Shown here piece by piece: positions 10,798 through 49,318 of a stretch of DNA of 64,000 nucleotides; within the stretch, counting starts at the first letter, position 1; each line of letters opens with the position of its first letter. Both the position numbers and the translations under genes were made by a program. The notes beneath the pieces are model-generated. The model was not told the DNA's origin. It saw only the letters and a program-made list of their open reading frames with translations, and made no database searches. Source of the stretch: Limonium bicolor (lineage: Eukaryota; Streptophyta; Magnoliopsida; Caryophyllales; Plumbaginaceae); the NCBI GenBank assembly GCA_023374045.1, contig CM041776.1:137023296-137087295 (forward strand), in the 5' to 3' direction.

Positions 10798-13190
10798 AGC
10801 GTCTAGTAGTATTTTTCCTTCTTAATTTTTCTTTTCAATTTTGTAAGGAGTTTATGATATTTCCATTTTAATAAGGTTTAGATGTTTGCATTTCAGTCTT
10901 TTGTCTTTTGAATTTGTAATCTCAAAAATACAAAAATGTTTGTTCATCTTGCATCTTAAACAAAATCGTCTTGCTCATCGGCAAACATCTTTCAAAACTA
11001 ATGTTCATGAAACGGTCATTTTCTGGCAATTGAACAAAACGACTTGTCTTTTGTTTCTAAAAGGATGAACATGTCCAACTAAACACCACAGCTCACCCCT
11101 AAGCATCCAAACAAACCACATAATGGTTCAAAGTCTACATTTGTCAAATTGTTGTCATAAGCCCTGGATTAATACTGGGGGCAATCTGAGTTTAAAGACC
11201 AACCACGATTATTTCTTTTGTTTAATTGTGTGAACAAGTCTCTGAGTGAAAAATTTTGCGAGAGTGCCTTGAGCGGAAAAACCATGAGCGAACAAGCGTG
11301 TCATTTTTACACGACTTCAGTGAGTCCACATTCAAAGGTGAGGTAAACGGCATAACTCCGACCGAAGGAGACAATTTGTAAATTTACTCTTAGAACTGTG
11401 AAAAGTAATAAAGAGCGGATACATAACTATCAGGAATGACGAAGCACCTACGTACAGCACCACATAGCCAAAAGCTTGTGAACCCTGACATTAAACCCTA
11501 GGCACCCCCACTGAGCCTTTCATTTATCCCTTTTCGACATTATGAACTCCACAAAATAACCAAGCCAATGATGAATGTCTGACACGGTGACCAAAGGAAG
11601 CGAGGAGTCCGACTCTTAGATAACGTTCTCATCAGTCCAAAGAAGCAATGCCGCTATCAGCATGACAAAGCGATCCGCAAATGGTCCCAGAGTGACATAG
11701 GATCCAAAGAGCTCACATCAAAACAACTCTCGAAACTCGAAAACCGGGAGATACAAGAACCCCGAAGGCGAAGTCAAGAAAGATAAAACAAAAAATGGTA
11801 AACCCAAAGTGCCTTAAAGAAATCCAAATGACAAAAAGGGAGAAATGGGGCAAAGGACGACTTCAAAAGTCCAAGTCCAGAAGTTCGAAAATAACGTCAA
11901 CACGAAGCAGCTAGACGACTTCAAAACAAGGAAGATGAATCCGAAAGAAGAGGTAGGGCACAGCTTTGGTCACCTCTTTTAGCTCCACATACCTCAAATA
12001 TCTCTCCATGATCCCGTTGTCTTTCATCACACCCCATCGCCACGTTATAAGCTTTAAAGACTTCCGACTTGGTAGTTGTGTATCTAATCACGTGAATGTA
12101 ACAGATCGAATGAGTAAATCCATCAAATGTCAAATTTAATGGTCTAGAAGTTGTGACCATAAGCAGAAAACAAGTGCAAACACCAAACACACTGAGTGTA
12201 GGTTAGGAAGCACCACATCTAAACATAAGCCTTGACCCTGTGAGGACGAGACTCATCCGCACATTTAATTAAAGAAAATACTGGGGGCAATCGATCGTTC
12301 CGATTGATTGCCATGAACTCTAGCTCAGATTGTTCTAAAGAAAAAATACTAGGGGCAATTTTTGGTTCCAACAATTGCCATGACAACACCAATTGAAACC
12401 CAAAGCTTGAGCACCACCATCCCACCATAGGCACACATAAGCCCTTACCTCCACACACACACTCTCAAGCCCGTCATTAGCCTTACCTCCACAAAAACAT
12501 CAGGCCCGTCATAACCCTGACCACCATCCAAAATCACAACCCAATCCCAGGTCTATCACAAATCCTGAACACCAACAAAAGCCTTTAGCACCACAAAAAA
12601 CAACACACACTTCCACCAACGGCATGTTCATCTTCGAAGAAACAAATTGCAGATATGAAATTCTTAGTCAGGAATGATCATTTCACTTTCCTTTTTCAGT
12701 AAAGTTTTTCTCAAGCATTGTCATGTTTGGCACCTTTTTCAACAGTTTCTTATTTTGGAAAAGTTTCCAACAAACACTTTAGTTGCATTTTACGACTTTT
12801 GCATAACATCTCAAGCATTGTCATGTTAGCACCTTTTTCAACAGTTTCTTGTTTTGGACAAGTTTCCAACAAACACTTTAGTTGCATTTTACAACTTCCG
12901 CATAACATCTCAAGCATTGTCATGTTTGGCACATTTTCCAACAGTTTCTTGTTTTGAACAAGTTTTCTTACGAACACTTTGATTTCATCTCTGCATAACA
13001 CCTCAGCACAGCCACGCTTGGCACATTTTTCGATGATTTCTTTCTTTGGACAATTTTTTATTCTTACTAGCGCTTTGGTCATAGTCACGTTTGGCATTTT
13101 CACCATTAGTTTACATCACAATCAATTGCATAAAATCAACATCATTGCATCTTTCAATACGAAACTCCTCAAGATAGAACCGAGGATTCA
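10798..13190 (+). other. Element B non-coding region with polypurine-like motifs and hairpins
   Basis: No coding frame. It aligns by eye with 40790-43000 of element A, so it is a conserved non-coding part of the family. Three CTGGGGGCAAT-like motifs (11175, 12281, 12349) resemble the true polypurine tract at 28379. The last two form the left arms of inverted repeats. At 12710-13090 short repeats of the type CATGTTTGGCAC...TTTCAACAGTTTCTTGTTTTGG recur every 80-120 bases. Confidence 0.6.
12281..12384 (+). other. Paired inverted repeats containing polypurine-like motifs
   Basis: Two adjacent inverted repeats, each with a GGGGCAAT left arm: GGCAATCGATCG facing CGATTGATTGCC, and GGCAATTTTTGG facing CCAACAATTGCC. 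Element A has the same pair at 42226-42255 and 42297-42320 with better pairing, so the structure is conserved between copies. Confidence 0.6.
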
Positions 13191-13281
13191 TGTAACACCC
13201 CTAATACGCACATGATACTAAATGAAATCGCAGCGGAATTAAATGACTAAACAGTAACTAACGCTTCGGTGCTACAACGCC

Positions 13282-13303
13282 GTCAACCACCCACGTGGTT
13301 GAC
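13282..13303 (-). other. Conserved LTR-end hairpin, D 3' LTR
   Basis: 9-bp perfect stem GTCAACCAC with GTGGTTGAC and a 4-nt loop, 91 bases from the LTR 3' end. The same structure occurs in the other LTR (23791-23812), and with different stem sequences in S1 and C. It is followed in the sense direction by TTCCGCTGCGA. Confidence 0.88.
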
Positions 13304-16300
13304 AAGGCAGAATAAATACAAGTGTACCGGTCTGATGATCAGACTCCCGAGCATAAACTAAACCATAAATACATTATATACAATACCGAGTAATACATAC
13401 ATCCTTCACTGTCAAACATCACTGTAAACTGTCACAACCAAATATAAACACGCCACGGGAGCACAGGCGATCCCGGGCCAATATCCCAAAAGTATACAAA
13501 AGTAAATCACATCCTAGGATCTAGAGCCACTCCGCTTCTTCGATCCTCATCCTGCAGTATAAGAAATATGGATCCCCCGAGGGGGTCAGCAACCCTTGGC
13601 TGGTATGGCTAACGCGCAGCCCATCGGCTACCGGGATACGCGCAGCTAATTGTCATGATAACATGGCATTATTTACATACATAACATAACATAACATGGA
13701 GCATAGCATCAATGGTGCATAGCTCATCATCACATACACGGTGGATCTTCGTTCCACAATAACAAACCACAAGGGTCAAATAACATAAGAGCCTAGAGAG
13801 TGATTCACCCTCATGTTAAGCTCGTTAAACACACTCATTACCGTTCTGTTAGACGAACGAGTAACTTAAGTCACAGATGGTTCGGATTTAGTGACCCGAA
13901 CACACCACACAAACACAGGTTCCCACTAAACCGATCATAAGTCAGAATAGGTAAGCTTTGGAAGAAGCTAGCGGGAGATCGAACGCCAAATTAAGGTGAA
14001 CAATCTTAACAACATAAGAGTCGAATCTGATTCAGATATCTACTCTTAACTTACATGCATGACCGGACAACCGGATTCCTCACTTCCCAGTTAACACTTG
14101 TTAGAAGTTCATAGTGGAACTTAACAACCATCACACAATAGGTGGTAAGTCATGTTAGACACACACAAGGGAAAATGAGTCACAACAACACAACACAATA
14201 ATATGAACAACTGTAAACTCATTACATGTTTAAATCTTATAACGTTGTAAACACACAGAAAAACATACAACACACAAACCGGTGTAAACCGCTAGACAAC
14301 AGACTGCAAGAAAACCATACCTCGGTCCTTGCCTCGACTGGTTTCCACCTTGAGAGAATCCTAAACACATTAGTAACGTCGGTTAATTAACGCACTAGTC
14401 CATTATTAACATTATCTACTCAACATTACTAGTTTATTTTTATTTTACACTTGTTACAACCTTTCATCCTTTTAATTGCCTTTAAAACCCACCTAACATG
14501 TCTTATATAACCTTATTATATCATTACTAACCAACTACTATTTTTAGATAACAATTCCCATCTTAAAACAATAATTTTTGGTCCATACAGTGGCCTGTCC
14601 GAACTTGTGTCCGAGCTTCCAAGTTCGGACACAAGCCGTGACTTTAGACAGAAATCAGACACATGTCCGAACTTGTGTCCGGACTTCGGAAGTTCGGACA
14701 TGAGTCGAGGAAAATCCTAACCAGAAGTCCATACGTCCGAACATGTGTCCGGACTTCCCAAGTTCGGACACAGTTCGAGGATAATCCCTAAGAAATAACA
14801 GGTGCGTCCGAACTTCCAAATTCGGACGGTAGTTCGGACACTACCTAAAATCCAGAAAACGTAAGCGCAACAGGGCATGTCCGAGCTTCCAAGTTCGGAC
14901 GGAAGTTCGGACGTGCCATTATACTCAATTTCTAAGCCTTTAAACACTTAACCAAATTCCTCCAAAGCCTCCTAATGCTTCCTAACAACCTTTGGTACCC
15001 TTATATCCACATACAACATTCATGAAACTCATTTCTAATTCCTTAAGCCTTTACTTATTTCTTTGTGAAATTCCTTAACACTTACAACATTTTGTACTAG
15101 GTTTCTAAATGGTGTTTCTCACCTATATAACTACTATCCCAAAATGCTTTCTCCTCATCTTAACATCATCTCTTAAGCATTATTTCTCACAACCAACTCC
15201 TTATGTCACTCTTGAAGTTCTTTTCCAAGTTTACACTTTCTTCTTATTTACCAAAGTTTGCCTAAGTCTTTACCTAAGTCCCAAAATGACTTTGGTACAT
15301 ACTAAAATCTCAAGCTCATGCCTAAGTCCTTGTTACATCCTAAATCACCTTAATGCATGTTTCCTACACAAGAACAACACTTAACCATTTTAAATACTCC
15401 TTAACTTATCAAACTCATTTTAACACTTAGAACTTCACATTTGTTACCCAAATTTTGACATAGGTTCTCCTAGAACATTACTAAACCAAAACACATTGTT
15501 TTTACCAACAAACAACCAAGAACACTAAAAATCCATCAAGTACTTTTATACACAACTTCACTCACAAAGCACTACATCACAATATAGTGCATAATTTGAA
15601 TTGCATGGCACTTAGGCCCTTAAATGACATGGCTCTTAGGCCCTTAAGATGCACAAATCATAAACACTGAATTTCCACAATATATTTGCCTTTAACCTGC
15701 AAATACACTCAACAACACATATGCCTTTTACTAAGCTCTTGGGAACACTTTACTAAGTCATTCACCATTGGCTCTTTAGGTAGTTTTAATAAGCATTTAT
15801 AAGCTCATTTCTCCTAAGGCATTAAAACAACATTAGGTTAGTAGATTTACCTCTTTTGCAAAATAACTTCTTTCTTGTTTCCTTTAGAAAACCGATAGAG
15901 TACTTGATTCTTTGACAAGTTCTAAACATATACAAACATTATAATGAGTATTCAAGCTATAAGCTCCATCTCATTGTAAACCCTAGTTTTACATTGTTTC
16001 AAAAACATTAATGTAGTTGTTTTACCTTGCTCTTTGAAGAGAGTTTGAATATCTAGCAAGAGAGGACTCCACCTAGTCCATGAAGGTTGGAATGAAGCTA
16101 GAACAAAGTCACATAAAAAGCTCCTTCAATGTGTATTTTCGGACATGACAAAAACAAGGAGGAAATGAAGTTTTTATTTGAGATTCCTTACCTAGAAGCC
16201 AAGGAGAGTAACAATATGTAAAAATACAAGCTCAAGCTCCTTCAATGAGAAACTCCATGGCACCGAAATGGTTGTCTTGGACTTTTGAAAAGATAGGAAT

Positions 16301-16843
16301 GAAGAGCTTGATGAGAGGAAGAGATTGGTGGTGTTTGTTTTTGATTTGGACAAGTGAGCAAGGTTTTACAAGAGATCAAAGTGGGAGTTTCAATGGAGGT
16401 AGTAGTATTACCGTGAGAGAGCAGCAAGAAGAAGGAAGAAGAGAGGTGGGAAACCGTGTGAGCAAGGAAAGAAATGAGAGAATGAAGATTGGTTTAACTT
16501 TAGAAGATATTTGTAGTTTAAAAGCAAATAGTACATTCTTAGTCATCATTATTTACTTAACAATTAACAAGAGGGTGGTGAGTCACCAAACCTTAGAAAA
16601 CCGGCCCCCAAATATAATGAGGGTAGTATAGTCTTTGTTTGTCAATTTAATTACTTATACAAACATATGTTACAAAATAGCTTATAAAAGTTACTATTCA
16701 TAAAACAAGGCACATAGAAGTGAAATTTTTGATTTCCCACTAATATAGACACCCAAATGTGATATTATATAGTACACATATATATTTAAGAGTAATGATG
16801 GACATTTAGCCATTCAAAACTCATTTACAAGACAATTTTTCAA

Positions 16844-16875
16844 AAATGTGCTTTAAGACTCCTTAAAGCACATTT
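16844..16875 (-). other. 14-bp hairpin near the D LTR 5' border
   Basis: AAATGTGCTTTAAG and CTTAAAGCACATTT form a perfect 14-bp stem around ACTC. The copy in the other LTR is at 27357-27388. C's LTR has a weaker version at about 32195-32230 and S1 has one arm-like word. Confidence 0.75.
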
Positions 16876-17137
16876 TGTGTTTAAACTTGTTTTCAAGCTT
16901 GGTTTTCTTTGGTAATTGGTTTAACATGTTCATTAGTGTATAAATGAGGTCTTGGTAAGTTCATTAGGTCTTAACCAAGTTTATCCCAAGCTTAGAGCAC
17001 ATTTTGGCTCTTATTGACTTTAAAGCACATTTTGTTTTCTTTTGTTTAAACTTTTTCTAATGTTTCTAAGACTCTTTTTAGTCTTAATACACCATATTTA
17101 AGTGTTTAAACAATATATTAAGGTTTGGGGTATTTCA

Positions 17138-17150
17138 ATCTACCCCCCTT
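17138..17150 (-). other. Element D polypurine tract
   Basis: On the minus strand AAGGGGGGTAGAT abuts the LTR start TGAAATACC. This is the expected plus-strand DNA primer site. Confidence 0.9.
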
Positions 17151-17258
17151 AAAAGAACTTTGTCCTCAAAGTTCATACTTCCACATATCCTAAATATTAG
17201 CACACGGGAATACTTATAAACAATACTTCCATACATTACTAACAACACACTTACATAA

Positions 17259-17448
17259 CATTGGACTCCAGGTCCATACAACATAACATAACATTGGACA
17301 CAAGGTCCATACAACATAACATAACATTGGACACAAGGTCCATACAACATAACATAACATTGGACACAAGGTCCATACAACATAACATAACATTGGACAC
17401 AAGGTCCATACAACATAACATAACATTGGACACAAGGTCCATACAACA
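17259..17448 (-). repeat. 33-bp tandem repeat in D 3' untranslated region
   Basis: Nearly six copies of a 33-bp unit (ATTGGACACAAGGTCC plus ATACAACATAACATAAC). The unit length is a multiple of three, so every frame stays open and gives repetitive pseudo-proteins; I do not regard these as genes. It lies between the integrase stop and the polypurine tract, the hypervariable zone known to seed satellites. Confidence 0.92.
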
Positions 17449-17543
17449 TTATCCACATCATTCAGACACAACGGTCTGTAACATAACAACATAACATAGA
17501 CGATGTATTCAAATACACGTCGTACACACATAACCGAAACGGC

Positions 17544-17558
17544 TCTACCCCCCTTAAA
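17544..17558 (-). other. Second polypurine-tract-like motif in D
   Basis: The minus strand reads TTTTAAGGGGGGTAG, matching the terminal tract (TTTTAAGGGGGGTAGAT) over 15 bases. It sits about 35 bases past the integrase stop, 400 bases before the true tract. Confidence 0.7.
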
Positions 17559-17592
17559 AAGGGGTACGCCCCGTACCCTATACACATAAGTA

Positions 17593-18850
17593 CTAAGAAG
17601 TAAACAATGACGGGTACTTCGCCTTCATCTTGTCTTCCAGCTCCCAAGTGGCCTCCTCAACGTCCTGGTTAGACCAAAGAACTTTCACCAGTCTCACGGA
17701 CTTATGGCGAGTGTCTCGAGTCTTAGCATCCAGAATCCGTACCGGAGTCTCCACTGATCGCATGGTCGGCTCTAAGGTTAGCCTTTCAGGCTGAAGCACA
17801 TGAGACGGATGAGACATATACTTCTTCAACTGGGACACATGAAATACATCATGTACCTTGCCCAGCTCGGCGGGTAGGTCTAGTCTATAGGCTACCGGGC
17901 CGATCCGCTCCGTCACAACATAAGGCCCCACATACTTTGGGCTCAACTTGCCCTTCTGGCCAAAACGAAATACTCCCTTCATGGGGGATACTCTCAAAAA
18001 TACCTGATCGCCCACGGCGAACTCCAGGTCACGTCGGCGCACATCTGCGTATGACTTCTGTCTATCCTGAGCTGCTTTCATATTAGCCCTGATCTGGCGA
18101 ACTTCTGCCTGAACTTGCTCAAGATACTCTGGTCCTATAATGACCGTCTCACTCGACTCATCCCAGCATAATGGCGTGCGGCATGGTCTACCGTACAAGG
18201 CCTGGAAGGGAGACATCTTGATCGAAGCATGATAACTGTTTGTTGTAACTAAACTCGATCAGATGTAACTTATCAATCCAGCTGGTCTGAAAGTCAAGTG
18301 CACAAGCACGTAGCATATCCTCAAGTGTCTGAATAGTGGCTCTCACTCTGACCATCGGTCTGTGGGTGAAACGCTGACTCAACTTCAATTCAGTACCCAA
18401 TGCCTCTCGTGTGACTTCCAATATCTGGATAAGAACTGGTATCTCTGTCAGATACAATCGTTTTGGTACACCATGATGTCTTACAATCTCTTTATCAAAC
18501 AGTTCTGCCAATCTTGCCACTTTCCAAGTGTCCTTCATCGAATGAATCGGGCCACCTTGGTCAGTCGGTCAACTATCACCCATATCATATTCAGACCTCC
18601 CCTTGTAGGCGGAAGCCCTACTACAAAGTCCATGGAGATATCATGGAACTTCCACTCAGGCACTGGCATTGGCTGTACCATACCACCAGGCCGTCGGTGC
18701 TCAAACTTGACCTTCTGGCAAGTGAGACCCTCAACACATACTCACTTACATCTTCTTCATTCCAGTCCACCAAAAATACCTTTTCATACTCTTATACATC
18801 TTTGAAGCTCCGGGGTGAATCGAAGTAGTAGAACAATGGGATTCACTCAT
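17593..18850 (-). pseudogene. int: Element D integrase with C-terminal chromodomain (frameshifted)
   Basis: Integrase inserts the cDNA; the chromodomain can steer it to marked chromatin. The sequence shows HPGASKMY and [13 protein letters not shown] of the zinc-binding region (about 18715-18830), MDFVVGLPP with the first catalytic Asp (about 18625), SDRDTS with the second Asp (about 18440), and ERTIQTLEDML in the third-acid region (about 18320). From 18216 to 17593 an unbroken 207-codon frame holds KLSPKYVGPYVVTERIGP (GPY/F module) and a chromodomain ending VKVLWSNQDVEEATWELE (about 17600-17700). The chromodomain form is that of Tekay/Del. Upstream parts are split between frames by short indels. 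Confidence 0.92.
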
Positions 18851-18908
18851 ATGCGCTCCTTCAACTCAGCGCTACTCCTAGGTATACACAAGCGGCCATT
18901 CAGCCTAA

Positions 18909-19569
18909 TCAGGTCATCATCATGGAGTCTGAAGTCGTACTTCTGACCCTCGAATGTGCCCAATAAGCTCTTCTGCCGGATCTCCAGCAGTACTGATCCG
19001 TCATCTGAGCACTCCGCACCTCTTCAACCAAGCCAGTATGAGAGACTAGCGAATGGAGAGAGTGTGCTCGGTGACTCAGTGCGTCAGCTACCACATTTGC
19101 CTTACCCTCTTTGTATTGCAGATTAATATCGTAGTCATTCAGAAACTCAACCCACCTTCTTTGCCTCATGTTCAACTCTTTCTGAGTGAACAAGTACTTT
19201 AAGCTTTTATGATCAGAATAGATTGTCACACTTACCCCATACAAATAATGTCGCCATATCTTCAATGCGAAGACAATGGCACCCAATTCTAAGTCGTGGG
19301 TAGGGTAGTTCTCCTCATGCTTCTTCAGCTGACGGGAGGCGTATGCTACGACCTTCCCGTGTTGCATCAACACAACCCATACCTCTGCCTGATGCGTCGC
19401 AGTAGACCTCAAAACCATCTGGACCGTCTGGTATAGTCAGGACTGGTGCAGATGTCAGAGCATCCTTGAGACTCGCGAAAGAACTCTCACAGTCAACTGT
19501 CCACTCGAATGGTGCATCCTTCTTCATTAAGGAAGTCATCGGCTTCGAGATACTGGAGAAGTCCTTCAC
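18909..19569 (-). pseudogene. Element D RNase H domain (frameshifted)
   Basis: Degrades RNA in RNA-DNA hybrids during cDNA synthesis. Visible in order: KPMTSLMKKDAPFEW (RT-RNase H connection), [11 protein letters not shown] (catalytic Asp), [38 protein letters not shown] (catalytic Glu), [19 protein letters not shown] (catalytic Asp) and ADALSHRA (last Asp). There is one frame change near 19380-19400. All key acidic residues are present. Confidence 0.93.
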
Positions 19570-20290
19570 AAACCTCCTATAGTAACCTGCCAGACCGAGG
19601 AAGCTCCTGATATCAGTGACTGTCTTCGGCTAGGCCAGGTGCGCACTGCATCTATCTTTGCCGGATCAACAGCGATCCCGGCCTCAGAAATCACATGTCC
19701 AAGGAAAGATACTTGGTTCAACCAAAATTCACATTTCGAAAACTTTGCATACAACTGGTTTCCTCCTCAGAGTTTGTAACACATTCTCAGGTGGCTTTCG
19801 TGCTCACCTCTAGATTTAGAATACACAAGAATGTCATCGATGAAGACTACCACACTTGTCCAACTGATCTTGGAATAAGCGGTTCATCAGTCCATGAACT
19901 TAGCTGGTGCATTCGATAAGCCAAACGGCATACTGTGAACTCATAATGCCCATACCTCGTTCTGAAAGCTGTCTTTTCCGATATCACTGTCACGGATGGC
20001 AATCTGATGGTATCCGGAACGTAAGTCTATCTTGGAGAATACTGATGCACCCCTCAGCTGATCAAATAGATCGTCGATGCGTGGTAAAGGGTAACGGTTT
20101 TTCACCGTAACAGCATTCAGCTCCCGATAATCAATACACAGGCGGAGGCTACCGTCCTTCTTCTTCACGAAGAGGACCGGCGCTCCCCATGGTGAAACAC
20201 TAGGGCGGATAAAGCCCTTGTCGAGTAGGTCTCTCAGCTGCTCCTTGAGCTCTGTCATCTCTGCTGGAGCCATACGATAAGGTGCCTTCG
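19570..20290 (-). pseudogene. Element D reverse transcriptase domain (frameshifted)
   Basis: Copies element RNA into DNA. The first 110 codons from 20273 include [40 protein letters not shown] and [13 protein letters not shown], with the first catalytic Asp in IDLRSG. The catalytic F-I-D-D box of the palm is encoded at about 19833-19844, followed by ILVYSK in a shifted frame. [25 protein letters not shown] (thumb) lies at about 19600-19700. Breaks are single-base-type changes, so the polymerase core is complete in content. Confidence 0.93.
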
Positions 20291-20426
20291 CAATGGGTCC
20301 GTGCCCGGAACTAAGTCGATCTCAAACTCAACATCCGTGCTGGCGGCATGCCCGGCAGTTCCTTAGGAAATACATCAGGAAACTCCGACACTACCGGCAC
20401 ATCTGGGCTAAACTCAGGGTCTCTCT

Positions 20427-20956
20427 CTATGTCCTGGACATAGCAGAGGTATACATCACTCCCTCGCGTAACTCACGATACATGGCCATGGCGGTGATGA
20501 TCTGTGTCGAAGGCTCCCTGGGCCTCTGGCGGTATGATATGGTAACCCCAGATGGACTCCGAAGAAGCAGTCGATGCTCGGCACACAGGATTCTGCCCTT
20601 GTACCGCTCCAACCAGTTCATCCCGACAATCACATCAAATCCAAGTCCGTCGAACTCTATCAGGTCGATCGGGAACTCTTCACCTCTGATTCGTACAATG
20701 ACATCTCGGTGGTAGCGGGTACACCTGATCCGCTCTTTCGATGGGAGAGTGACCAAGAAGTCTGGCATCTCCTCTCCATCTAACCCCAGCCTCTTCGCAA
20801 AAGATAGCGAAACAAATGTGTGTGAGGCTCCAGAGTCGAACAAGATCGATGCATCCACGCCATTCACTGGAAAGGTACCGGTGAGGATTGTGCCGCTCTT
20901 GCCGGCTTCTGCCTCATTGCAGACACTCAATGTACCTCCCGTTCCGAGTGCACAGC
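20427..20956 (-). pseudogene. Element D protease, start of the pol exon
   Basis: Aspartic protease that would cleave the polyproteins. The active-site motif is LFDSGASHTFVS with the Asp codon at 20835-20837; the region continues through FDVIVGMNWLERY. The frame is open from 20956 down to 20427. Upstream of the usual start the frame runs to AG at 20957-20958, a candidate splice acceptor, and no ATG suits the beginning. A spliced or frameshifted Gag-Pol is therefore more likely than independent initiation. After 20427 the frame breaks before RT. Confidence 0.92.
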
Positions 20957-21140
20957 CTAATTCATTGGCAAACTAATAAGTACTGGGTAACAACACGGTT
21001 GATATACTTCAATAACTCCACTTTATTCATTAACACTTCCTCTTTACAACATTGTTGGTTTACATGGTTGATATAACTTAACACATACATAACTCCCTTA
21101 ACATATACTACTGCTTAACACATTACAAAGTATACAAGGC

Positions 21141-21895
21141 TTAGAATTGTCTGAAGGTCAAATTCAAACGTCCGGGTTTCATGTGTGTGGCATTGATCAC
21201 TGCCGACGGTGCGGTATTCAGTTTGATCTTTCTGATGCCATGATATAGCATCCTTGACTGCCCACCCATGATTAGTACATCTCTGACTTTAACATTAACT
21301 TCCTTGCGAGATCAGCACGCTTCTGCTCGCCATACACAAATACTGCGGTATCACCAATGGACCAAGACACCACGGGTACTCCCTTACTTAGAGACTCGGG
21401 TGACTCGTCCTTATCTTGGTGTAAACCTAACCGTCCACCTTTCTGGTAGAAGTTCACAATACACAAATCTGCTTCTACATTTGGAATTGAATCCGTTTCA
21501 ACTTGTTGAGCAATTCCCCGGCGTGATTAACGACCGCACGGAACTCCTCTGGTATACTTGGTACCGTTGCTCCATCTTCAGCTCGCACTTCTTGATATGA
21601 CTGGGTGTAAGGGTTCCAGTCCTTACCCATGCACATCATCTTCAATTGCATTCTTGATCCGTTCGGATATTCAGGTGTGTAGAAACCTCCAGGTTTAGCT
21701 CCAAGTTCGTCGCATCGTCTGATGATATGGACTTGTGCTTCCGGTGTCAGGTATCCACTTAAAGTATCATACCTGGCTGGATAACCTGACATTGCTCCAT
21801 TGGAAAGTCGGTGATGTTGATGGTGGTCTCTTCAGGGTTTGGTGTGGGTGGGATTGGATAACATATATTGAAGGTTCCTTCCAGTTTAGAATTAT
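21141..21895 (-). pseudogene. AlkB-type Fe(II)/2-oxoglutarate dioxygenase domain captured by element D
   Basis: AlkB enzymes oxidatively remove methyl groups from nucleic acids using Fe(II), O2 and 2-oxoglutarate. In order: FNIC (about 21868), GYLTPEAQVHIIRRCDELG (about 21750), KPGGFYTPEYPNGSRMQLKM, LGLHQDKDES with Fe ligands His 21419-21421 and Asp 21413-21415, GVPVVSWSIGDTAVFVYG, VLIMGGQSRMLYHGI with the distal His at 21240-21242, and RLNLTFR with 2-oxoglutarate-binding Arg at 21168-21170 and 21150-21152. It ends with a stop at 21141-21143. The pattern, including the GGFY...MMCMGKDWNP segment, is that of plant ALKBH1-like proteins rather than the m6A eraser ALKBH9/10 group, judged from memory. 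Three single-base deletions in short homopolymers split the frame (near 21741, 21480 and 21283). It lies between Gag and protease of D and in the same direction, so it is part of the element. Substrate unknown: RNA m1A/m6A, DNA 6mA or tRNA are possibilities. Confidence 0.93.
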
Positions 21896-22024
21896 CTAAT
21901 TAGGTGTCTTCCACACTATACTTTAACTCCTTACTCACATGATAGTACACTTGAACTCACTAACACACACAAGCATGAAATGCGGTATGCAATCACTTAT
22001 TACATTCAACAGTTTAGGCGGTAC
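21896..22024 (-). other. Candidate intron between gag and AlkB
   Basis: 129 bases from GTACCG after CCAG to TAATTAG. Gag's only open frame ends in phase 1 at this donor, and the AlkB exon enters in the matching phase at 21895. Unspliced, Gag stops 2 codons into the intron (TAA at 22017-22019). The same donor is phase-compatible with the acceptor before protease (20957), which would give a 1068-base intron containing AlkB. Confidence 0.6.
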
Positions 22025-22365
22025 CTGGTCTAGAAGAAGGCCCTGGCGCCTCAGACCGGTCCACCACATTCAGGGTGGCCTTGCTAGGTCCCGACCCCTT
22101 CCCCTTCTGGGAATCAGTATGCCTCTGATCAGTGGGTGGCTGGTTAGCCGTCTTCGGCCATCAATAGCTGCTGTGGCCTTACCCTTCCACTGCCCCTTGG
22201 GCTTGTTGACTCTGCTGTTGGGGTTCCGGTAACACTCATGGTCACGGTGACCCCACTTCTCGCAGTATCGACACTGCACCTCATTTCCCTTGCAGTCCTT
22301 GCCGGGGTGGTCTCCATTGCACCACTTACAGTAATAGTGGCGCTCCGGTCCAGAGCCCGTGCTAG

Positions 22366-22444
22366 CTGTTAACACGATACACACTCAGTACTTGTTTCAC
22401 AACTTATCAATACACATCAACTTATGACACATGATTAAACTTAC
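22366..22444 (-). other. Candidate gag intron 2 (79 nt)
   Basis: GTAAGTTT to TTAACAG on the minus strand. The upstream exon ends in a YPPK-coding stretch and the downstream exon begins just before the first zinc knuckle. A phase-1 junction restores one frame. The donor matches the plant consensus well and the interior is AT-rich, as is usual for plant introns. Confidence 0.75.
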
Positions 22445-22705
22445 CCTTTGGTGGGTATGAGCGTAGGGGCTTCGCCGCATAAGCATATGTGAGCTTCAGT
22501 GGCTCCTCAGCGTGGTGGTTTGGGCTTGGCCCTTGTCACCCTGGTGCTGACTCTTCTGGGGCTGGGGATAAGGTTTCTTCTTCTTCTTTCCTCCCCCGTA
22601 CCCCTGCGAACTCTGGCCCTCGCTCGTGGCCTTGCGCTTGTGCGCATTTTCCTCGTCCCTCAGACGGACGGTGATCTCCACCTTAGCAGCGGCATGATAG
22701 CACTC

Positions 22706-22810
22706 CTGTATTTAGGATGATCAGTCATGCCCCGCAATACATACTCACAAACTCACATTAATACTCACTTGTAGACTATACATATTCACATCACTCTTTA
22801 CTTAAATTAC
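22706..22810 (-). other. Candidate gag intron 1 (105 nt)
   Basis: CAG then GTAATTTAAG to AAATACAG then GAG. It joins ...EYTTLQ to ECYHAAAKVE in phase 0, reconstituting a Gag helix. Unspliced, the frame stops 3 codons into the intron. The interior is AT-rich with several stops in all frames. Confidence 0.75.
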
Positions 22811-23666
22811 CTGCAAGGTAGTATACTCAGCTGGCCCCATCCCATAGCGAAGACGGTGGCTGAGACCGTTATAGAAACGGTTTACCAGCACCCGGTTCGA
22901 GTATCCCAGGTCCGGTAACAGGTGGACAAGGCCGGTGAAGGCGGTGTAATACTCATCAACCGTCACCTTGTCCCCCTGCCTCAGGCTATCCAGCTCCAGG
23001 CGCTTGGCCTCTTGAACGTGCACGGGGTAGTATTTGGCTCGCAGCAGAGCCGTGTACTCCCTCCAGCCAAACTGAGGATCCGCCATCCGGTCCTCTCTCA
23101 CTAGCTTCCACCAGTTTTGTGCCGAACCCTTCAGGTAGTAAGCGGCAAGACGGACCTTAGCCTCTGCGGGCAGCCAAGGTCTCGTAGGCGGTCTCCAACT
23201 CGGAGATGTACGCCTCCAGCTTACGTGGGTCGGTCTCCCCATGAAATGAAGGGGGTCTCAGATCTGCCAATGCCTTGACCCAGTTGGTCTCTCGTGGCGG
23301 TGGCGGTGGTGGCTGAACTCCGGGCATCTGCCCCTGCTGGATCGCAGCTACAAGCTGGGGTACCATCTGGGCCACAGCGGCTGCTACAGCCTCAGCCATA
23401 CCTGAGCCATAGTGTTCTCGCCCTGGTCACCCCCAGTACTAGAACCACTTCCGCGACCTCTACCGCGTGGTCTACCTGCCATCTGTATTCACATGAATAT
23501 TCATTAGCAATATGCTTGCACACTTATCGGTCCAACGGTCGTAACGCTTCCCGACAATAAGGTATTTCCACACTTAGTTAGTGGTTAACCTTTCCATAAC
23601 TGATCACTTAGGTAACTGTAGTTAGGTTTCCTAACTCGGTATATTCCTAAGCTCGGTATTCTAGTC

Positions 23667-23690
23667 ATCAGAGCGATACTTCGCTCTGAT
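23667..23690 (-). other. PBS-embedding hairpin of element D
   Basis: Perfect 10-bp inverted repeat (ATCAGAGCGA and TCGCTCTGAT) with a 4-nt loop. One arm is most of the PBS. This would put the primer site in a stem-loop in the genomic RNA. Confidence 0.8.
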
Positions 23691-23694
23691 ACCA
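23683..23694 (-). promoter_or_regulatory. Element D primer binding site (initiator tRNA-Met)
   Basis: The minus strand reads TGGTATCAGAGC, the classical plant iMet PBS, five bases from the LTR end. Confidence 0.95.
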
Positions 23695-23699
23695 CTTTT

Positions 23700-26600
23700 T
23701 GTAACACCCCTAATACGCACATGATACTAAATGAAATCGCAGCGGAATTAAATGACTAAACAGTAACTAACGCTTCGGTGCTACAACGCCGTCAACCACC
23801 CACGTGGTTGACAAGGCAGAATAAATACAAGTGTACCGGTCTGATGATCAGACTCCCGAGCATAAACTAAACCATAAATACATTATATACAATACCGAGT
23901 AATACATACATCCTTCACTGTCAAACATCACTGTAAACTGTCACAACCAAATATAAACACGCCACGGGAGCACAGGCGCATCCCGGGCCAACATCCCAAA
24001 AGTATACAAAAGTAAATCACATCCTAGGATCTAGAGCCACTCCGCTTCTTCGATCCTCATCCTGCAGTATAAGAAATATGGATCCCCCGAGGGGGTCAGC
24101 AACCCTTGGCTGGTATGGCTAACGCGCAGCCCATCGGCTACCGGGATACGCGCAGCTAATTGTCATGATAACATGGCATTTATTTACATACATAACATAA
24201 CATAACATGGAGCATAGCATCAATGGTGCATAGCTCATCATCACATACACGGTGGATCTTCGTTCCACAATAACAAACCACAAGGGTCAAATAACATAAG
24301 AGCCTAGAGAGTGATTCACCCTCATGTTAAGCTCGTTAAACACACTCATTACCGTTCTGTTAGACGAACGAGTAACTTAAGTCACAGATGGTTCGGATTT
24401 AGTGACCCGAACACACCACACAAACACAGGTTCCCACTAAACCGATCATAAGTCAGAATAGGTAAGCTTTGGAAGAAGCTAGCGGGAGATCGAACGCCAA
24501 ATTAAGGTGAACAATCTTAACAACATAAGAGTCGAATCTGATTCAGATATCTACTCTTAACTTACATGCATGACCGGACAACCGGATTCCTCACTTCCCA
24601 GTTAACACTTGTTAGAAGTTCATAGTGGAACTTAACAACCATCACACAATAGGTGGTAAGTCATGTTAGACACACACAAGGGAAAGTGGTCACAACAACA
24701 CGTCACAATAATATGAACAACTGTAAACTCATTACATGTTTAAATCTTATAACGTTGTAAACACACAGAAAACATACAACACACAAACCGGTGTAAACCG
24801 CTAGACAACAGACTGCAAGAAAACCATACCTCGGTCCTTGCCTCGACTGGTTTCCACCTTGAGAGAATCCTAACACATTAGTAACGTCGGTTAATTAACG
24901 CACTAGTCCATTATTAACATTATCTACTCAACATTACTAGTTTATTTTTTTTTACACTTGTTACAACCTTTCATCCTTTTAATTGCCTTTAAAACCCACC
25001 TAACATGTCTTATATAACCTTATTATATCATTACTAACCAACTACTATTTTTAGATAACAATTCCCATCTTAAAACAATAATTTTTGGTCCATACAGTGG
25101 CCTGTCCGAACTTGTGTCCGAGCTTCCAAGTTCGGACACAAGCCGTGACTTTAGACAGAAATCAGACACATGTCCGAACTTGTGTCCGGACTTCGGAAGT
25201 TCGGACATGAGTCGAGGAAAATTCTAACCAGAAGTCCATACGTCCGAACATGTGTCCGGACTTCCCAAGTTCGGACACAGTTCGAGGATAATCCCTAAGA
25301 AATAACAGGTGCGTCCGAACTTCCAAATTCGGACGGTAGTTCGGACACTACCTAAAATCCAGAAAACCGTAAGCGCAACAGGGCATGTCCGAGCTTCCAA
25401 GTTCGGACGGAAGTTCGGACGTGCCATTATACTCAATTTCTAAGCCTTTAAACACTTAACCAAATTCCTCCAAAGCCTCCTAATGCTTCCTAACAACCTT
25501 TGGTACCCTTATATCCACATACAACATTCATGAAACTCATTTTCTGATTCCTTAAGCCTTTACTTATTTCTTTGTGAAATTCCTTAACACTTACAACATT
25601 TTGTACTAGGTTTCTAAATGTGTTTCTCACCTATTATAACTACTATCCCAAAATGCTTTCTCCTCATCTTAACATCATCTCTTAAGCATTATTTCTCACA
25701 ACCAACTCCTTATGTCACTCTTGAAGTTCTTTTCCAAGTTTACACTTTCTTCTTATTTACCAAAGTTTGCCTAAGTCTTTACCTAAGTCCCAAAAGCCTT
25801 TGGTACATACTAAAATCTCAAGCTCATGCCTAAGTCCTTGTTACATCCTAAATCACCTTAATGCATGTTTCCTACACAAGAACAACACTTAACCATTTTA
25901 AATACTCCTTAACTTATCAAACTCATTTTAACACTTAGAACTTCACATTTGTTACCCAAATTTTGACATAGGTTCTCCCTAGAACATTACTAAACCAAAA
26001 CACATTGTTTTTTACCAATAAACAACCAAGAACACTAAAAATCCATCAAGTACTTTTATACACAACTTCACTCACAAAGCACTACATCACAATATAGTGC
26101 ATAATTTGAATTGCATGGCACTTAGGCCCTTAAATGACATGGCTCTTAGGCCCTTAAGATGCACAAATCATAAACACTGAATTTCCACAATATATTTGCC
26201 TTTAACCTGCAAATACACTCAACAACACATATGCCTTTTACTAAGCTCTTGGAACACTTTACTAAGTCATTCACCATTGGCTCTTTAGGTAGTTTTAATA
26301 AGCATTTATAAGCTCATTTCTCCTAAGGCATTAAAACAACATTAGGTTAGTAGATTTACCTCTTTTGCAAAATAACTTCTTTCTTGTTTCCTTTAGAAAA
26401 CCGATAGAGTACTTGATTCTTTGACAAGTTCTAAACAATATACAAACATTATAATGAGTATTCAAGCTATAAGCTCCATCTCATTGTAAACCCTAGTTTT
26501 ACATTGTTTCAAAAACATTAATGTAGTTGTTTTACCTTGCTCTTTGAAGAGAGTTTGAATATCTAGCAAGAGAGGACTCCACCTAGTCCATGAAGGGTTG

Positions 26601-27652
26601 GAATGAAGCTAGAACAAAGTCACATAAAAAGCTCCTTCAATGTGTATTTTCGGACATGACAAAAACAAGGAGGAAATGAAGTTTTTATTTGAGATTCCTT
26701 ACCTAGAAGCCAAGGAGAGTAACAATATGTAAAAATACAAGCTCAAGCTCCTTCAATGGAGAAACTCCATGGCACCGAAATGGTTGTCTTGGACTTTTGA
26801 AAGGATAGGAATGAAGAGCTTGATGAGAGGAAGAGATTGGTGGTGTTTGTTTTTGATTTGGACAAGTGAGCAAGGTTTTACAAGAGATCAAAGTGGGAGT
26901 TTCAATGGAGGTAGTAGTATTACCGTGAGAGAGCAGCAAGAAGAAGGAAGAAGAAGGTGGGAAACCGTGTGAGCAAGGAAAGAAAATGAGAGAATGAAGA
27001 TTGGTTTAACTTTAGAAGATATTTGTAGTTTAAAAGCAAATAGTACATTCTTAGTCATCATTATTTACTTAACAAATTAACAAGGGTGGTGAGTCACCAA
27101 ACCTTAGAAAACCGGCCCCCTAAATATAATGAGGGTAGTATAGTCTTTGTTTGTCAATTTTAATTACTTATACAAACATATGTTACAAAATAGCTTATAA
27201 AAGTTACTATTCATAAAACAAGGCACATAGAAGTGAAATTTTTGATTTCCCACTAATATAGACACCCAAATGTGATATTATATAGTACACATATATATTT
27301 AAGAGTAATGATGGACATTTAGCCATTCAAAACTCATTTACAAGACAATTTTTCAAAAATGTGCTTTAAGACTCCTTAAAGCACATTTTGTGTTTAAACT
27401 TGTTTTCAAGCTTGGTTTTCTTTGGTAATTGGTTTAACATGTTCATTAGTGTATAAATGAGGTCTTGGTAAGTTCATTAGGTCTTAACCAAGTTTATCCC
27501 AAGCTTAGAGCACATTTTGGCTCTTATTGACTTTAAAGCACATTTGTGTTTTCTTTTGTTTAAACTTGTTTTCTAATGTTTCTAAGACTCTTTTAGTCTT
27601 AATACACCATATTTAAGTGTTTAAACAATATATTAAGGTTTGGGGTATTTCA
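23700..27652 (-). repeat. Element D 5' LTR
   Basis: 3953 bp and nearly identical to the 3' LTR. It supplies the promoter on the minus strand. It holds the same GTCCG/CGGAC block (25100-25432) and hairpins (23791-23812 and 27357-27388). No gene was recognised. Confidence 0.96.
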
Positions 27653-27657
27653 ATTCA

Positions 27658-28378
27658 GATTCTTCAGAGATACAGATTCTCATCCGAGTAGAAGAACTCA
27701 CCAGAGTAGAAGAACTCACCAGAGTAGAAGAACTCGCCAGAGTAGAAGAACTCACCCTAGTAGAAGAACTCACCCGAGTAGACAAACTCAACCTCAGGCT
27801 CGTCATGAGCCTAATTTCCTACCATTCCACTTAGGCACCCATAAGTCCTACATTACATTCGTCCATTTAGGCACACATCACATCAATCTCATTACACCTC
27901 TTTTCATTTTTAGTATCCCGACACCTTAGATGCTTTGTCTAGTTTTACACTTTTCACATTTTAGGTAGTCAACGCCTTAGAATAGCTTAGCATCATTTCA
28001 TTCATTATAGGTAGTCAACGCCTTAGAATAGCTTGACATCTTTTCATTCATTATAGGTAGTCAACGCCCTAGAATAGCTTGAAATCATCTCATTCATTAT
28101 AGGTAGTCAACGCCTTAGAATAGCTTGGCATCGTATCATCCTTATAGGTAGTCGACGCCTTAGAATAGTTCGACATTACTTCACTTTTACCTTTAGGTGG
28201 TCGATGCCTTATAATCGCTCGACATCCTTTCACTTTACTCATAGGTAGTCAGTGCCTTAGAACAGCTCGACAAAATTTGTCGGTTTTCAACTGGATGCGG
28301 GGTCTTTTAAGATCCAAAATTTTGGGGTATCACTCAAGCATCAACTAGCCTTTTCATTTCCATTACAAAGCCTAGTTG
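27658..28378 (+). repeat. Element B 3' region: two tandem-repeat blocks
   Basis: 27676-27800 has about seven copies of an 18-bp unit like AGAGTAGAAGAACTCACC. 27960-28275 has about seven units of 45-60 bp sharing GGTAGTCAACGCCTTAGAAT...GCTTGAC, each a small inverted repeat. Element A has related arrays at 43015-43900. No coding capacity. Confidence 0.88.
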
Positions 28379-30178: not shown

Positions 30179-31534
30179 TCTGTGAAATTATTGGTACTTT
30201 GTACCCCGTGAATATTTATACAATTTTGCCTGTAGAAATTACTTGCAGTTAAGCTCTATTGATCTACTCCTTTGGGTCATAAGTTACCTTCTAGGGGTGT
30301 GCACACTTAAGGATGTAGAGTGAGGTGGGATATTATTGTTGCGACCCCAATCTGGGATTCGTCCGCGTATACTGATAATTGGATTCTTTGAAAGTTCTCC
30401 CCCGAAATGTTATTATATGATGGTTTGGAAATGGTTCAATTGAATAACATTAGTGTGTGAATTATTATTTTGCAGATGTAAAATGAGGTTCAAAATGTAT
30501 TTTACAAGTTGAGGCAATGTTTACTCAGTTTTGCTGATTTGCGAGGCCCTTTCGCGTTTTCTGTATGTTGTTTTCTGGTCGCAAGTATCGATGGATAAAT
30601 TGGGGATGGGGAATGCGCTATCATCTTACTTAGGAAGGACGGGTAAATTTATGGGTCATTGAGTTAAGTTTTAGAACAGTTCAAATTGAGTTATGGTATT
30701 TGGAAAACATTTTTGGAATTGTTAGTGGATTGATTTAAGCCTGAGCACTCATTGGTTAATGAGTGTGGCGGTAACGCCCTGATAGTTTGCATTTCCGCTG
30801 ATGTTGATTCAATCATATGTTTGATATGTTTAAGAGGCTGTTTTGGATAATTATGATTTATGTTGAAGTTTTCATGTGGTGATTAAAAGATCTTTTCATG
30901 GTATTTATCATTATCTAAAGTGATATAAGTTCACTAGAATATGTCTCTGTCAATTGACAATGTATTCATGGTTATTTTGATGATGTTCTGACTTTGCTTT
31001 TGTATTTAAAACTGCACTTCCGGACCTATCCGAACGTCCGTCTGGACATCCATGTTCGGACAGGCCCCGAGAGTCTTGTTTGATTTTGTAGGAATGGGTG
31101 TGTTCGAACATCTGTCCGAACATCAAAGTTCAGACACCGTGTGAGGAGGATTCCAACTTGCAAGTTTCGACTTATGTCCGAACTTGCAAGTTCAGACCAA
31201 TGTTCGGACCACGTAAGGAATTTTTCGGACTTTTGAAACTCGACTTGTGTCCGAACTTCAATGACCGGACACAAGTTTGGACGCCTTTGTTTTCCGGTTT
31301 TTCAACTCTCTACTTGTGTCCAAACATCAATGTCCGGACACAAGTTCGGACATTTGGATTTTCTCAACGTTTTTCTTCTCGGCTTGTGTCCGAACTTAGA
31401 CGTCCGGACATAAGTTCGGACCAGACTTAATTTGCACTCTTATGACTCATTTGGGGTCCGTTTTTGGAGCCGTTTTCACCGTTAGATTCGTAATTTCATA
31501 AGCTATTATTTAAGGTAAAGTCCAGGGTGTTACA
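30179..31534 (+). repeat. Element F 5' LTR, right part
   Basis: Resumes after element B and ends CCAGGGTGTTACA just before a PBS. It contains a dense GTCCGAAC/GTTCGGAC cluster (31016-31440) like that in D's LTR. There is no 9-bp hairpin near this end, so F is a distinct family from D, S1 and C. Non-coding. Confidence 0.75.
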
Positions 31535-43014: not shown

Positions 43015-43260
43015 GAGATACAGATTCTCGCCCCGAAGATACAGATTCTTCAGAGATACAGATTCTCGCCCCGAAGATACAGATTCTTCAGAGATACAGA
43101 TTCTCGCCCCGAAGATACAGATTCTTCAGAGATACAGATTCTCGCCCTGAAGATACAGATTCTTCAGAGATACAGATTCTCGCCCCGAAGATACAGATTC
43201 CTCAGAGATACAGATTCTCACCCGATCAGGGATACAGATTCTCAGCCGAAGGTTCAGATC
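43015..43260 (+). repeat. 38-bp tandem repeat (GATACAGATTC unit) in A
   Basis: About six copies of a 38-bp unit made of two half-units, each starting AGATACAGATTCT. Related single copies flank D's insertion in B near 27655. Confidence 0.9.
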
Positions 43261-47397: not shown

Positions 47398-47815
47398 ATG
47401 TCTGGGGGAACTAGAGGGCATGGTACTGGTAGAGGTGGAGGCGGTGACCCCGTGATTCCAGGAGTTGCAGAGATGATTGCTGCCGTTCTCGCACAGCTTG
47501 GTACTCAAATTGGAGGAACACCAGCCCACCCGCCACAGCCCAGGGAGACGAACTGGCTGAAGTCAGTTACAGAGACCCGACCACCTACTTATTCAGGGGA
47601 GCCAGACCCCGTAGCCTTGGAGCGTTTTATAGTTGAACATGAGAAGGCCTACGAAGCTCTACAAGTACCTACCGACAAGAAGGTCGTCATTGCTGCATTC
47701 CATCTGAAGGATGCAGCCAGCACTTGGTGGAGGTTGGTCAAGGACCATCACCTGGCTGCGCCCGACTTTACGTGGGCTGCCTTTGTCGAGTTGCTGAGGG
47801 GGAAGTACTACCCGG
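47398..47815 (+). pseudogene. gag: Element C gag, N-terminal 139 codons, cut by element E
   Basis: Begins MSGGTRGHGTGRGGGGD. It carries PRETNWLKSVTETRPPTYSG, AAFHLKDAASTWWRLVKD and ELLRGKYYPV, matching block by block the Gag of D (RETNW, YYLKGSAQNWW, LLRAKYYPV). The open frame is intact up to the CCGG at the E junction, then reads into E's LTR. The upstream in-frame ATG at 47350 is unlikely because homology starts at the MSGG methionine, as in D's MAGRPRGRGRG. The remainder should lie beyond E. Confidence 0.92.
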
Positions 47816-48789
47816 TGTGGAGGGTGATTTTTCGGTATGAGGGGGGGTCTATCTAGATATGGTCTGACTGGGAAGCCTAGATCCTAGAAAATGCCATTCT
47901 GTGAAGGATGAAAACCCGTTATTCTTGGCATCCCTCAAATACCTACTCTATCGTCCGTCTTTCCCAGAAAGCGCAAGGGGAATGCTAGTGAGCACTACAC
48001 CCGCTCTCGATGAGTTGACTAGAGTCGCCACCTAGTTTGACCTATGATAACTAGGAAGGAAGATCGGGTTCTAAGAACCGTTAATTGACTCTGAGATTGT
48101 TGCCTATGGATAGGACTTATTTGGTCATTTCAGAGATTCTGTGTGGGTTCGCACTGGGTTACACCCCTTGGAAGTGGCAACGACCACGACTTCGGATTGG
48201 TGCCCGAGGAAACCTCGGTCTCCAATTGTCGGGATTACCTTCTTTTAAAACCTTTTTAGAGAGATTCATTTAAAAGCCAAGAATAGGATTAGGACAGGAG
48301 GAGAGAAAAACGAGTGGATGAGGCGAGCTTTTCTGCCAAGCTAGCGTCAAGAAGAAGAATTGATGAATTCGAATGAGTATAGAATGAAAGATTAGGAGTC
48401 TGATTTTGAGAGTTGAAGAAGTCAAGAGTTTGTGGGAGTTAGAAGGGATTTGAATGTTTGACAGTCATAAATGTCGCCTTAGAGTTGGGAAAGGGGTTTT
48501 TTGGATTGGAATGGGGTCGCACCCTATGTGGGCTGCTACTACAACTCCCTGTTGAGATCAGACCTTACGTAGTTCAGGTTTGGGGGTTTTTTGGAGATTT
48601 TTGAGGAGTTTGGAGAAGTTTTTGGTTTAAGGTGTTAGTCTGTGAGACGCTCGGGTCTATAGGATGATCAAGGCTTGAAAGGGTTATAAGTTTTGAAGGT
48701 GTTCGGGTGTGAAAAGCTGAGGGTTCTTGAGGTTTTTGAGTTTGCTGAGTCTATGGAGATATTGGAGTTCGTTGGAGGTTGAGACAGTC

Positions 48790-49085: not shown

Positions 49086-49318
49086 AGATTTGAGATGCTT
49101 GAGTTCTAAGGAGTTTGGAGTTTCAAGGAGTTTGAGATTAATGATGTTTGGGATTATTTGGGAATGAAATGAAGTTGAATTGAATTGGGTTTGAATTGGA
49201 TTCAAGTTCGATTTGGATTAAGAACGAGTTTGAATTGGATTGAGGTCGAGTTCGGTTTCAATTGAGGTCGAGTTTGAATTGGGTTGAGGTTCAGGCTTGA
49301 ACTGGATTGAAGTTCGGG

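What the first reader, a model, noticed from the sequence alone, without database searches (positions are those of the whole stretch)
21141..21895. A chromovirus that carries an AlkB-type dioxygenase between Gag and protease
Element D encodes a near-complete AlkB domain in the direction of its own genes. Fe ligands (HQD and the His of LYHG) and the paired Arg of RLNLTFR are all present, so selection has kept the active site. AlkB domains are known in plant RNA viruses of the Flexiviridae group, where they are thought to counter methylation of viral RNA. From memory, Arabidopsis ALKBH9B favours mobilisation of a heat-activated retrotransposon by removing m6A. An element carrying its own demethylase would be a counter-defence acquired from the host. 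I know of no description of this, but I could not search.
Basis: partly seen in the sequence, partly recalled or inferred. Interest (0 to 1): 0.95.

Follow-up and report, generated by a model that had tools for sequence, protein, structure and literature searches.

The report
Jumping gene with spliced-in demethylase
A many-copied plant retrotransposon carries, inside an intron between its coat-protein and polymerase genes, an AlkB-type gene with every known catalytic residue; splice scars in the genome show its RNA cut so that this predicted demethylase is joined in frame to the coat-protein gene, which would likely let the enzyme clean methyl marks off the element's own RNA or DNA.

Summary
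Element D is a complete, young Ty3/gypsy element (13191-27652, minus strand, TSD ATTCA, 3.95-kb LTRs) with a plant ALKBH1-type AlkB domain between zinc-knuckle Gag and protease. In D the domain is split over three frames; indels outnumber substitutions between D's LTRs 25 to 13, so assembly errors are a likely cause. The 2.92-Gb own genome gave 150 scored full-length AlkB matches, 149 without stops. In 20 of 20 fetched, protease lies beside AlkB on the same strand and the active site is complete; dN/dS is 0.11-0.16. A third subfamily (one locus) shares the slot. AlkB sits inside a real intron. From one donor, splicing to the protease acceptor gives Gag-Pol and to an AlkB acceptor gives in-frame Gag-AlkB; both predicted junctions exist as genomic copies (15 and 13 places; subfamily B Gag-AlkB 11; reversed-pattern controls 0). 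An AlkB-carrying gypsy element is already published (orchid Ogre lineage, ALKBH5-type, separate ORF, PMC9289625), so this is a new variant of a known kind: another clade, another AlkB class, another expression mode. Activity, translation and effect on transposition are untested.

The parts
23700..27652 (-). 5' LTR of element D (ends ...TGTTACA in element orientation)
13191..17137 (-). 3' LTR of element D; 13 substitutions and 25 indels (24 of one base) against the 5' LTR
13186..13190 (.). target-site duplication ATTCA (left)
27653..27657 (.). target-site duplication ATTCA (right)
23683..23694 (-). primer binding site TGGTATCAGAGC (initiator tRNA-Met type; identification recalled)
17138..17160 (-). 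polypurine tract region (AAGGGGGG)
22811..23426 (-). gag exon 1, capsid (Retrotrans_gag PF03732), frame broken where two ORFs overlap at about 23157-23257
22706..22810 (-). intron 1 (GT..AG); absent, with alignment breaks within 4 bases of the sites, from 3 of the 8 Gag-Pol-junction loci held
22445..22705 (-). gag exon 2
   Evidence: sequence
22366..22444 (-). intron 2 (GT..AG); spliced junction found in 144 genomic places
22025..22365 (-). gag exon 3, two CCHC zinc knuckles (read by eye) and linker ending ...SSRPG
20957..22024 (-). intron 3: donor CAG|GT at 22024, distal acceptor AATTAG ending at 20957; contains AlkB
21141..21877 (-). AlkB (ALKBH1-type) coding region reached by the proximal acceptor AAG ending at 21878; stop TAA 21143-21141; in this copy split over three frames
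20427..20956 (-). protease exon (RVP_2 PF08284), start of pol
19941..20321 (-). reverse transcriptase piece (RVT_1)
18909..19436 (-). RNase H (RT_RNaseH PF17917)
17593..18258 (-). integrase C-terminus: SH3_Tf2-1 (over cut-off) and Chromo (E 2.3e-4, below Pfam cut-off)

Best explanation
This is a high-copy Ty3/gypsy chromovirus-like family that carries an ALKBH1-type dioxygenase with a complete active site inside the gag-pol intron, and genomic splice scars show that one donor is joined in frame either to protease (Gag-Pol) or to AlkB (Gag-AlkB), so that the predicted demethylase would likely ride on Gag into the virus-like particle and strip N-methyl groups from the element's RNA or cDNA. Shown: slot, open reading frames in many copies, complete active site, purifying selection, the splice sites, and both junctions as genomic copies. 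Inferred: that these RNAs are translated; that unspliced RNA gives Gag alone (a stop follows the donor within four codons in subfamily A); that Gag-AlkB enters particles; the substrate; the benefit to the element.
For: Pfam PF13532 on open copies L011 and L009, E 1.4e-49 and 8e-50, full profile; best PDB sequence match rice ALKBH1 5xeg; AlphaFold model of L011 AlkB, pLDDT 87.9, best Foldseek hit OsALKBH1 5xoi, E 4.8e-28, TM 0.92 by target. Own genome: 150 of 150 scored hits full length, 149 without stops. Of 20 of these loci fetched: protease on the same strand in 20, gag found in 18, zinc knuckle in 19; HQD / YHG / R...R complete in 20. NG86 dN/dS, 18 of 20 copies used: within A 0.156, within B 0.147, between 0.107; protease 0.268 / 0.424 / 0.115. 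Third subfamily, same order, one locus (L050). Junctions: Gag-Pol 15 places, 5 exact; Gag-AlkB in A 13, 3 exact, in B 11, 4 exact; intron 2 144, 58 exact; reversed-pattern controls 0 in all four. L029, L032 and L036 lack all three introns. Both junctions read in frame: SSRPG|TFNICYPIPP and SSRPG|CALGTGG...GTFPVNGVDASILFDSGAS. In subfamily B the first ATG of the AlkB ORF lies after the GGFYTP motif in 7 of 7, so an own AUG start is unlikely there.
Against: No RNA or protein data. The window copy itself is broken. The 150 hits are the best scorers of 38325 first-look candidates, so they favour intact copies; of 150 protease-anchored places only 4 could be read: AlkB in the slot in 4 of 4, but open in 1 of 4. 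The first RT piece is more constrained than AlkB (dN/dS 0.064 within A, 0.130 within B). The stretch before the domain core is weakly constrained (15 copies, pN/pS 0.45 in A, 0.93 in B, 0.47 between). dS between subfamilies is near saturation. The AlkB acceptor is in phase in 7 of 7 B but only 7 of 13 A copies; in the others the frame breaks before it or the site is shifted. All 13 A copies have an ATG shortly before (11) or at (2) the domain start, so a separate protein from an intron-retaining RNA is not excluded there. Several junction places lie about 10-11 kb apart and may be duplicates of one event. A shifted-junction control did not complete. The Chromo match is below Pfam's cut-off. 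Substrate unknown; host ALKBH1 gene not identified.
Confidence: 0.7

Rival explanations
1. AlkB is made as a free accessory protein from intron-retaining or other RNA and acts on host chromatin or host RNA rather than in the particle.
For: In subfamily A 13 of 13 fetched copies have an ATG shortly before (11) or at (2) the start of the domain; the orchid element encodes its AlkB as a separate ORF; rice ALKBH1 is reported to bind genes with a chromatin signature and its loss raises 6mA in R-loop regions (abstract of PMC10469495).
Against: Subfamily B has no ATG before the domain core in 7 of 7; Gag-AlkB junctions exist in A and B and were read in frame in the A loci held.
Confidence: 0.3
2. AlkB repairs alkylation damage in the element's RNA or cDNA (as proposed for plant RNA virus AlkBs) rather than erasing regulatory marks.
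For: The model's closest folds are OsALKBH1 and then E. coli AlkB, a repair enzyme.
Against: No direct evidence either way; same anatomy as the best explanation.
Confidence: 0.3
3. The AlkB-less junction copies are the ancestral state and the AlkB intron was inserted later; the 'junction' is an empty site, not a splice scar.
For: L030, L031, L033, L034, L035 keep introns 1 and 2 and lack only the AlkB intron.
Against: L029, L032, L036 lack all three introns; Gag-AlkB junctions with a different acceptor exist in two subfamilies; the intron-2 junction is found at 144 places.
Confidence: 0.05
4. A passenger host-gene fragment or retrocopy without function.
For: The copy in the window is frame-broken, as are 3 of 4 protease-anchored copies.
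Against: dN/dS 0.11-0.16, 20 of 20 active sites complete, three subfamilies with AlkB in the same slot.
Confidence: 0.03

Closest known systems
Gypsy_Pa_2799 lineage of Phalaenopsis orchids (Alvarado-Marchena et al. 2022, PMC9289625)
   Same: Plant Ty3/gypsy element with an AlkB (PF13532) domain, cofactor residues kept, many copies; its protein demethylates m6A in ssRNA in vitro.
   Different: There: Tat/Ogre lineage, 25 kb, ALKBH5-like, separate 565-aa ORF2, tRNA-Arg primer. Here: chromodomain-type element, 14.5 kb, ALKBH1-type, in the gag-pol intron and spliced in frame to Gag, tRNA-Met-type primer site. In their 121-genome screen the authors found the domain only in two Phalaenopsis species.
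Plant ALKBH1-like genes (OsALKBH1, ALKBH1A-D)
   Same: Fold, active site, native C-terminus; 45-54% identity of 24 such rows to the open copy L011.
   Different: Element proteins and four unnamed public proteins form one clade (100/100) apart from the 41 other rows, 38 of them named plant proteins.
Ogre gag-pro intron; EVADE/BARE short-Gag splicing
   Same: Splicing of an LTR retrotransposon RNA sets Gag against Gag-Pol (passages of PMC12786077).
   Different: Here an alternative 3' splice site adds a captured enzyme to Gag.
AlkB domains of plant RNA viruses (Flexi- and Closteroviridae)
   Same: Mobile genetic element using an AlkB domain.
   Different: Viral matches to the model are much weaker than cellular ones (best E 3.9e-11, 18% identity, a giant virus).

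Membership tests
Ty3/gypsy LTR retrotransposon | LTRs, TSD, PBS, PPT and gag-PR-RT-RH-INT order | tested here: met
Chromovirus | chromodomain after integrase | tested here: inconclusive
   Chromo E 2.3e-4 (21.5 bits) in D and 1.4e-4 (22.1 bits) in L011, cut-off 25.1; at the expected place after SH3_Tf2-1; tRNA-Met-type PBS fits
Chromovirus clade Tekay | RT-RH-INT tree position | not tested
   no reference sequences at hand
AlkB / 2OG-Fe(II) dioxygenase PF13532 | HxD...H and RxxxxxR, full profile | tested here: met
   20 of 20 loci; PF13532 1-194
Plant ALKBH1 class | closest to ALKBH1 in sequence and fold | tested here: met
   no tree with ALKBH2-10 was made
Active nucleic acid demethylase | removes methyl from DNA or RNA | not testable with these tools
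   needs an enzyme assay
Orchid AlkB-Ogre lineage | ALKBH5-like AlkB in separate ORF2 of a Tat/Ogre element | tested here: not met
   ALKBH1-type, in the gag-pol intron, chromo-type integrase end
Alternatively spliced retrotransposon | spliced RNA forms exist | tested here: met
   junction copies in the genome; RNA itself not seen

The most novel reading that the evidence does not exclude
Plant chromoviruses have, from one old capture, turned a host ALKBH1 into a particle-borne eraser: alternative splicing sets a three-way output of Gag, Gag-AlkB and Gag-Pol, and the Gag-tethered enzyme removes adenine methylation from the packaged genome before or during reverse transcription.
Probability: 0.35. 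Interest if true: 0.93.

Novelty: new variant of a known kind. Interest (0 to 1): 0.82.

Why it matters
It would show that gypsy elements acquired AlkB enzymes at least twice, in different clades and from different AlkB classes, which argues that nucleic acid methylation is a real pressure on plant retrotransposons. It also gives a retrotransposon whose accessory enzyme is delivered by splicing onto Gag, with splice scars in the genome as a natural record of its RNA forms, and makes the question of what plant ALKBH1-type enzymes act on directly testable with a natural set of variants.

Tried and rejected
Viral contigs (IMG/VR) searched with two AlkB pieces and the protease piece: no relatives. 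Protein search with AlkB piece 1: 42 candidates, none at E 0.001; piece 2 gave 94 proteins. First guess for the AlkB acceptor (TTAG, exon from 21895): the junction pattern gave 26 places; in 22 of them GT still follows the donor motif (unspliced), and 4 read GACCAG|AAAACCC, of which the 3 fetched showed no match to the element; replaced by AG|GAACC, which gave 13. The host ALKBH1 gene was sought with P0110: 111 places scored, all at 50-57% identity; the one fetched (L050) is an element; the host gene stays unidentified. Passenger fragment: rejected by dN/dS. ALKBH5/9/10 type: no such PDB match by sequence. Intron 1 junction, a shifted-junction control and the subfamily-B Gag-Pol junction did not complete.

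Full report
What is in the window. Element D runs from 13191 to 27652 on the minus strand. Its LTRs (13191-17137 and 23700-27652) are 99% identical over 3.95 kb, it is flanked by the duplication ATTCA, and a tRNA-Met-type primer site (recalled) and a G-rich polypurine tract lie at the right places. Gag, protease, RT, RNase H and integrase-chromo matches follow in order. A PF13532 AlkB match lies between the zinc knuckles and the protease.

State of this copy. The AlkB domain lies in three frames. The two LTRs differ by 13 substitutions but 25 indels, 24 of them of one base, and D against its nearest fetched relative (L025) shows 118 gap openings beside 133 mismatches over 6.1 kb. Ordinary decay would give more substitutions than indels (general knowledge), so many of the frame breaks are likely assembly errors; I did not test this with reads. 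Substitutions alone (K 0.0033) mean an insertion within about 0.13 million years at a recalled rate of 1.3e-8.

What kind of AlkB. By sequence the two longer pieces match rice ALKBH1 first (E 7.1e-23 and 3.9e-21); the second also matches E. coli AlkB and mammalian ALKBH1. The open copy L011 models with pLDDT 87.9 and matches OsALKBH1 with E 4.8e-28. Among the best 120 listed of 2654 proteins the nearest named ones are plant ALKBH1-like proteins at up to 55% identity. In a tree of 52 rows the 7 element proteins and four unnamed public proteins (P0095-P0098) form one clade, 100/100, apart from the 41 other rows, 38 of them named plant proteins. With subfamily C and L053 added (32 rows) the same split holds, the unnamed proteins lying among the element subfamilies, so the element rows alone are not one clade. 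The unnamed proteins are therefore likely element-encoded in other sources; their context was not seen.

A family, not a passenger. The own genome (2.92 Gb) gave 150 scored PF13532 matches of 38325 first-look candidates, all full length, 149 without stops. I fetched 20, picked by hand down the list. Protease lies beside AlkB on the same strand in 20 of 20; gag was found in 18 (not in L018 and L022), the zinc knuckle in 19. They fall in two subfamilies: A with 13 copies, like D, and B with 7, about 68-71% identical in protein. All 20 keep HQD, the second His and both Arg. NG86 dN/dS for AlkB, 18 of 20 copies (2 with a stop in the match dropped): 0.156 within A, 0.147 within B, 0.107 between (dS near 2, saturated). 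Protease: 0.268, 0.424, 0.115. The first RT piece: 0.064 within A, 0.130 within B. AlkB is thus about as constrained as protease or more so, and less than RT. Bias: these are top scorers. A third subfamily, C (one locus, L050), has the same order with AlkB at 61% identity to A, pN/pS 0.28-0.30 against A and B at near-saturated pS.

The splicing. Gag is interrupted by two short GT-AG introns (22706-22810 and 22366-22444), and a third donor at 22024 ends the zinc-knuckle exon. In the A alignment (13 copies and D) the donor GT at 22024 and the protease acceptor AG are kept in 14 of 14, while L022 and L027 depart at intron 1 and L014 lacks intron 2; B has the same layout. L014 lacks intron 2 letter for letter at the splice sites, and the same junction is found at 144 genomic places (58 without mismatch; reversed control 0). 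I predicted the junction of the third donor with the protease acceptor at 20957 and searched for it: 15 places, 5 exact, control 0. Of the 8 held, L029, L032 and L036 lack all three introns (breaks within 4 bases of the sites); L030, L031, L033, L034 and L035 lack only the AlkB intron. I then found an acceptor AG|GA just before the AlkB core, in phase in 7 of 7 B and 7 of 13 A copies, and searched for Gag-AlkB: 13 places in A, 3 exact, and 11 in B, 4 exact, controls 0. In the A loci held the junctions read in frame: SSRPG|TFNICYPIPP for Gag-AlkB (L046-L049) and SSRPG|CALGTGG...GTFPVNGVDASILFDSGAS for Gag-Pol (L029, L031, L032, L036), though further downstream several of these copies have frame breaks. 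Some places lie 10-11 kb apart and may be duplicates, so the counts are of places, not of events. In A the unspliced frame meets a stop within four codons of the donor, so unspliced RNA should give Gag alone (inference).

Mechanism. From one transcript the element would make Gag (unspliced), Gag-AlkB (proximal acceptor) and Gag-Pol (distal acceptor). B lacks an ATG before the AlkB core in 7 of 7, which favours the fusion; in A 11 of 13 have one shortly before the domain and 2 at its start, so a free protein is possible there. A Gag-tethered AlkB would likely be packaged with the genome and act on RNA or cDNA; which methyl mark it removes is unknown. Rice ALKBH1 acts on adenine methylation in DNA (abstract of PMC10469495), whereas plant work on ONSEN points to m6A on RNA as a brake on mobility (passages of PMC12786077).

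What is known. PMC9289625 (abstract, introduction, methods, parts 1-2 of 3 of the results, discussion) describes an ALKBH5-like AlkB in Phalaenopsis Ogre-related elements with m6A demethylase activity in vitro, and found the domain in no other of 121 plant genomes than two Phalaenopsis. The ten paper searches over the held open-access library, of which I saw the listed titles and abstract starts, showed no other AlkB-bearing LTR retrotransposon and no Gag-AlkB fusion; subscription papers and preprints were not searched. PMC12786077 (passages) says plant LTR elements generally lack introns, with Ogre and EVADE as exceptions. So: a new variant of a known kind.

Limits. No RNA, protein or activity data; host unnamed; host ALKBH1 gene not identified; Tekay membership not tested; the Chromo match is sub-threshold.

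Noticed in passing
window 47461-47817 +: Piece of a second chromovirus-like gag (45-47% to D's gag), cut off by other sequence; the AlkB pieces matched nowhere else in the window.
   Followed up: partly
window 48012-49317 and 62531-63859: 99% identical direct repeats about 14.5 kb apart with 26-base tandem repeats inside, like the LTRs of another large element.
   Followed up: no
window 54415-56598: Satellite array, unit 49 bases (about 44 copies), higher-order 300 bases.
   Followed up: no
window 17253-17449: 33-base tandem repeat (6 copies) between the chromo end and the 3' LTR of element D.
   Followed up: no
window 27655-27680 and 43011-43223: The flank of D's insertion site resembles the 38-base tandem repeat at 43 kb (TTCAGAGATACAGATTCT).
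   Followed up: no
window 25103-25420, 31167-31421: Repeats with GTCCGAACTT motifs inside D's LTR, also present inverted at 31 kb.
   Followed up: no
L030, L031, L033, L034, L035: Copies that keep introns 1-2 but lack the AlkB intron; they might be an AlkB-free lineage that still amplifies.
   Followed up: partly
P0095, P0096, P0097, P0098: Unnamed public proteins inside the element AlkB clade: probably relatives of this family in other plants.
   Followed up: partly
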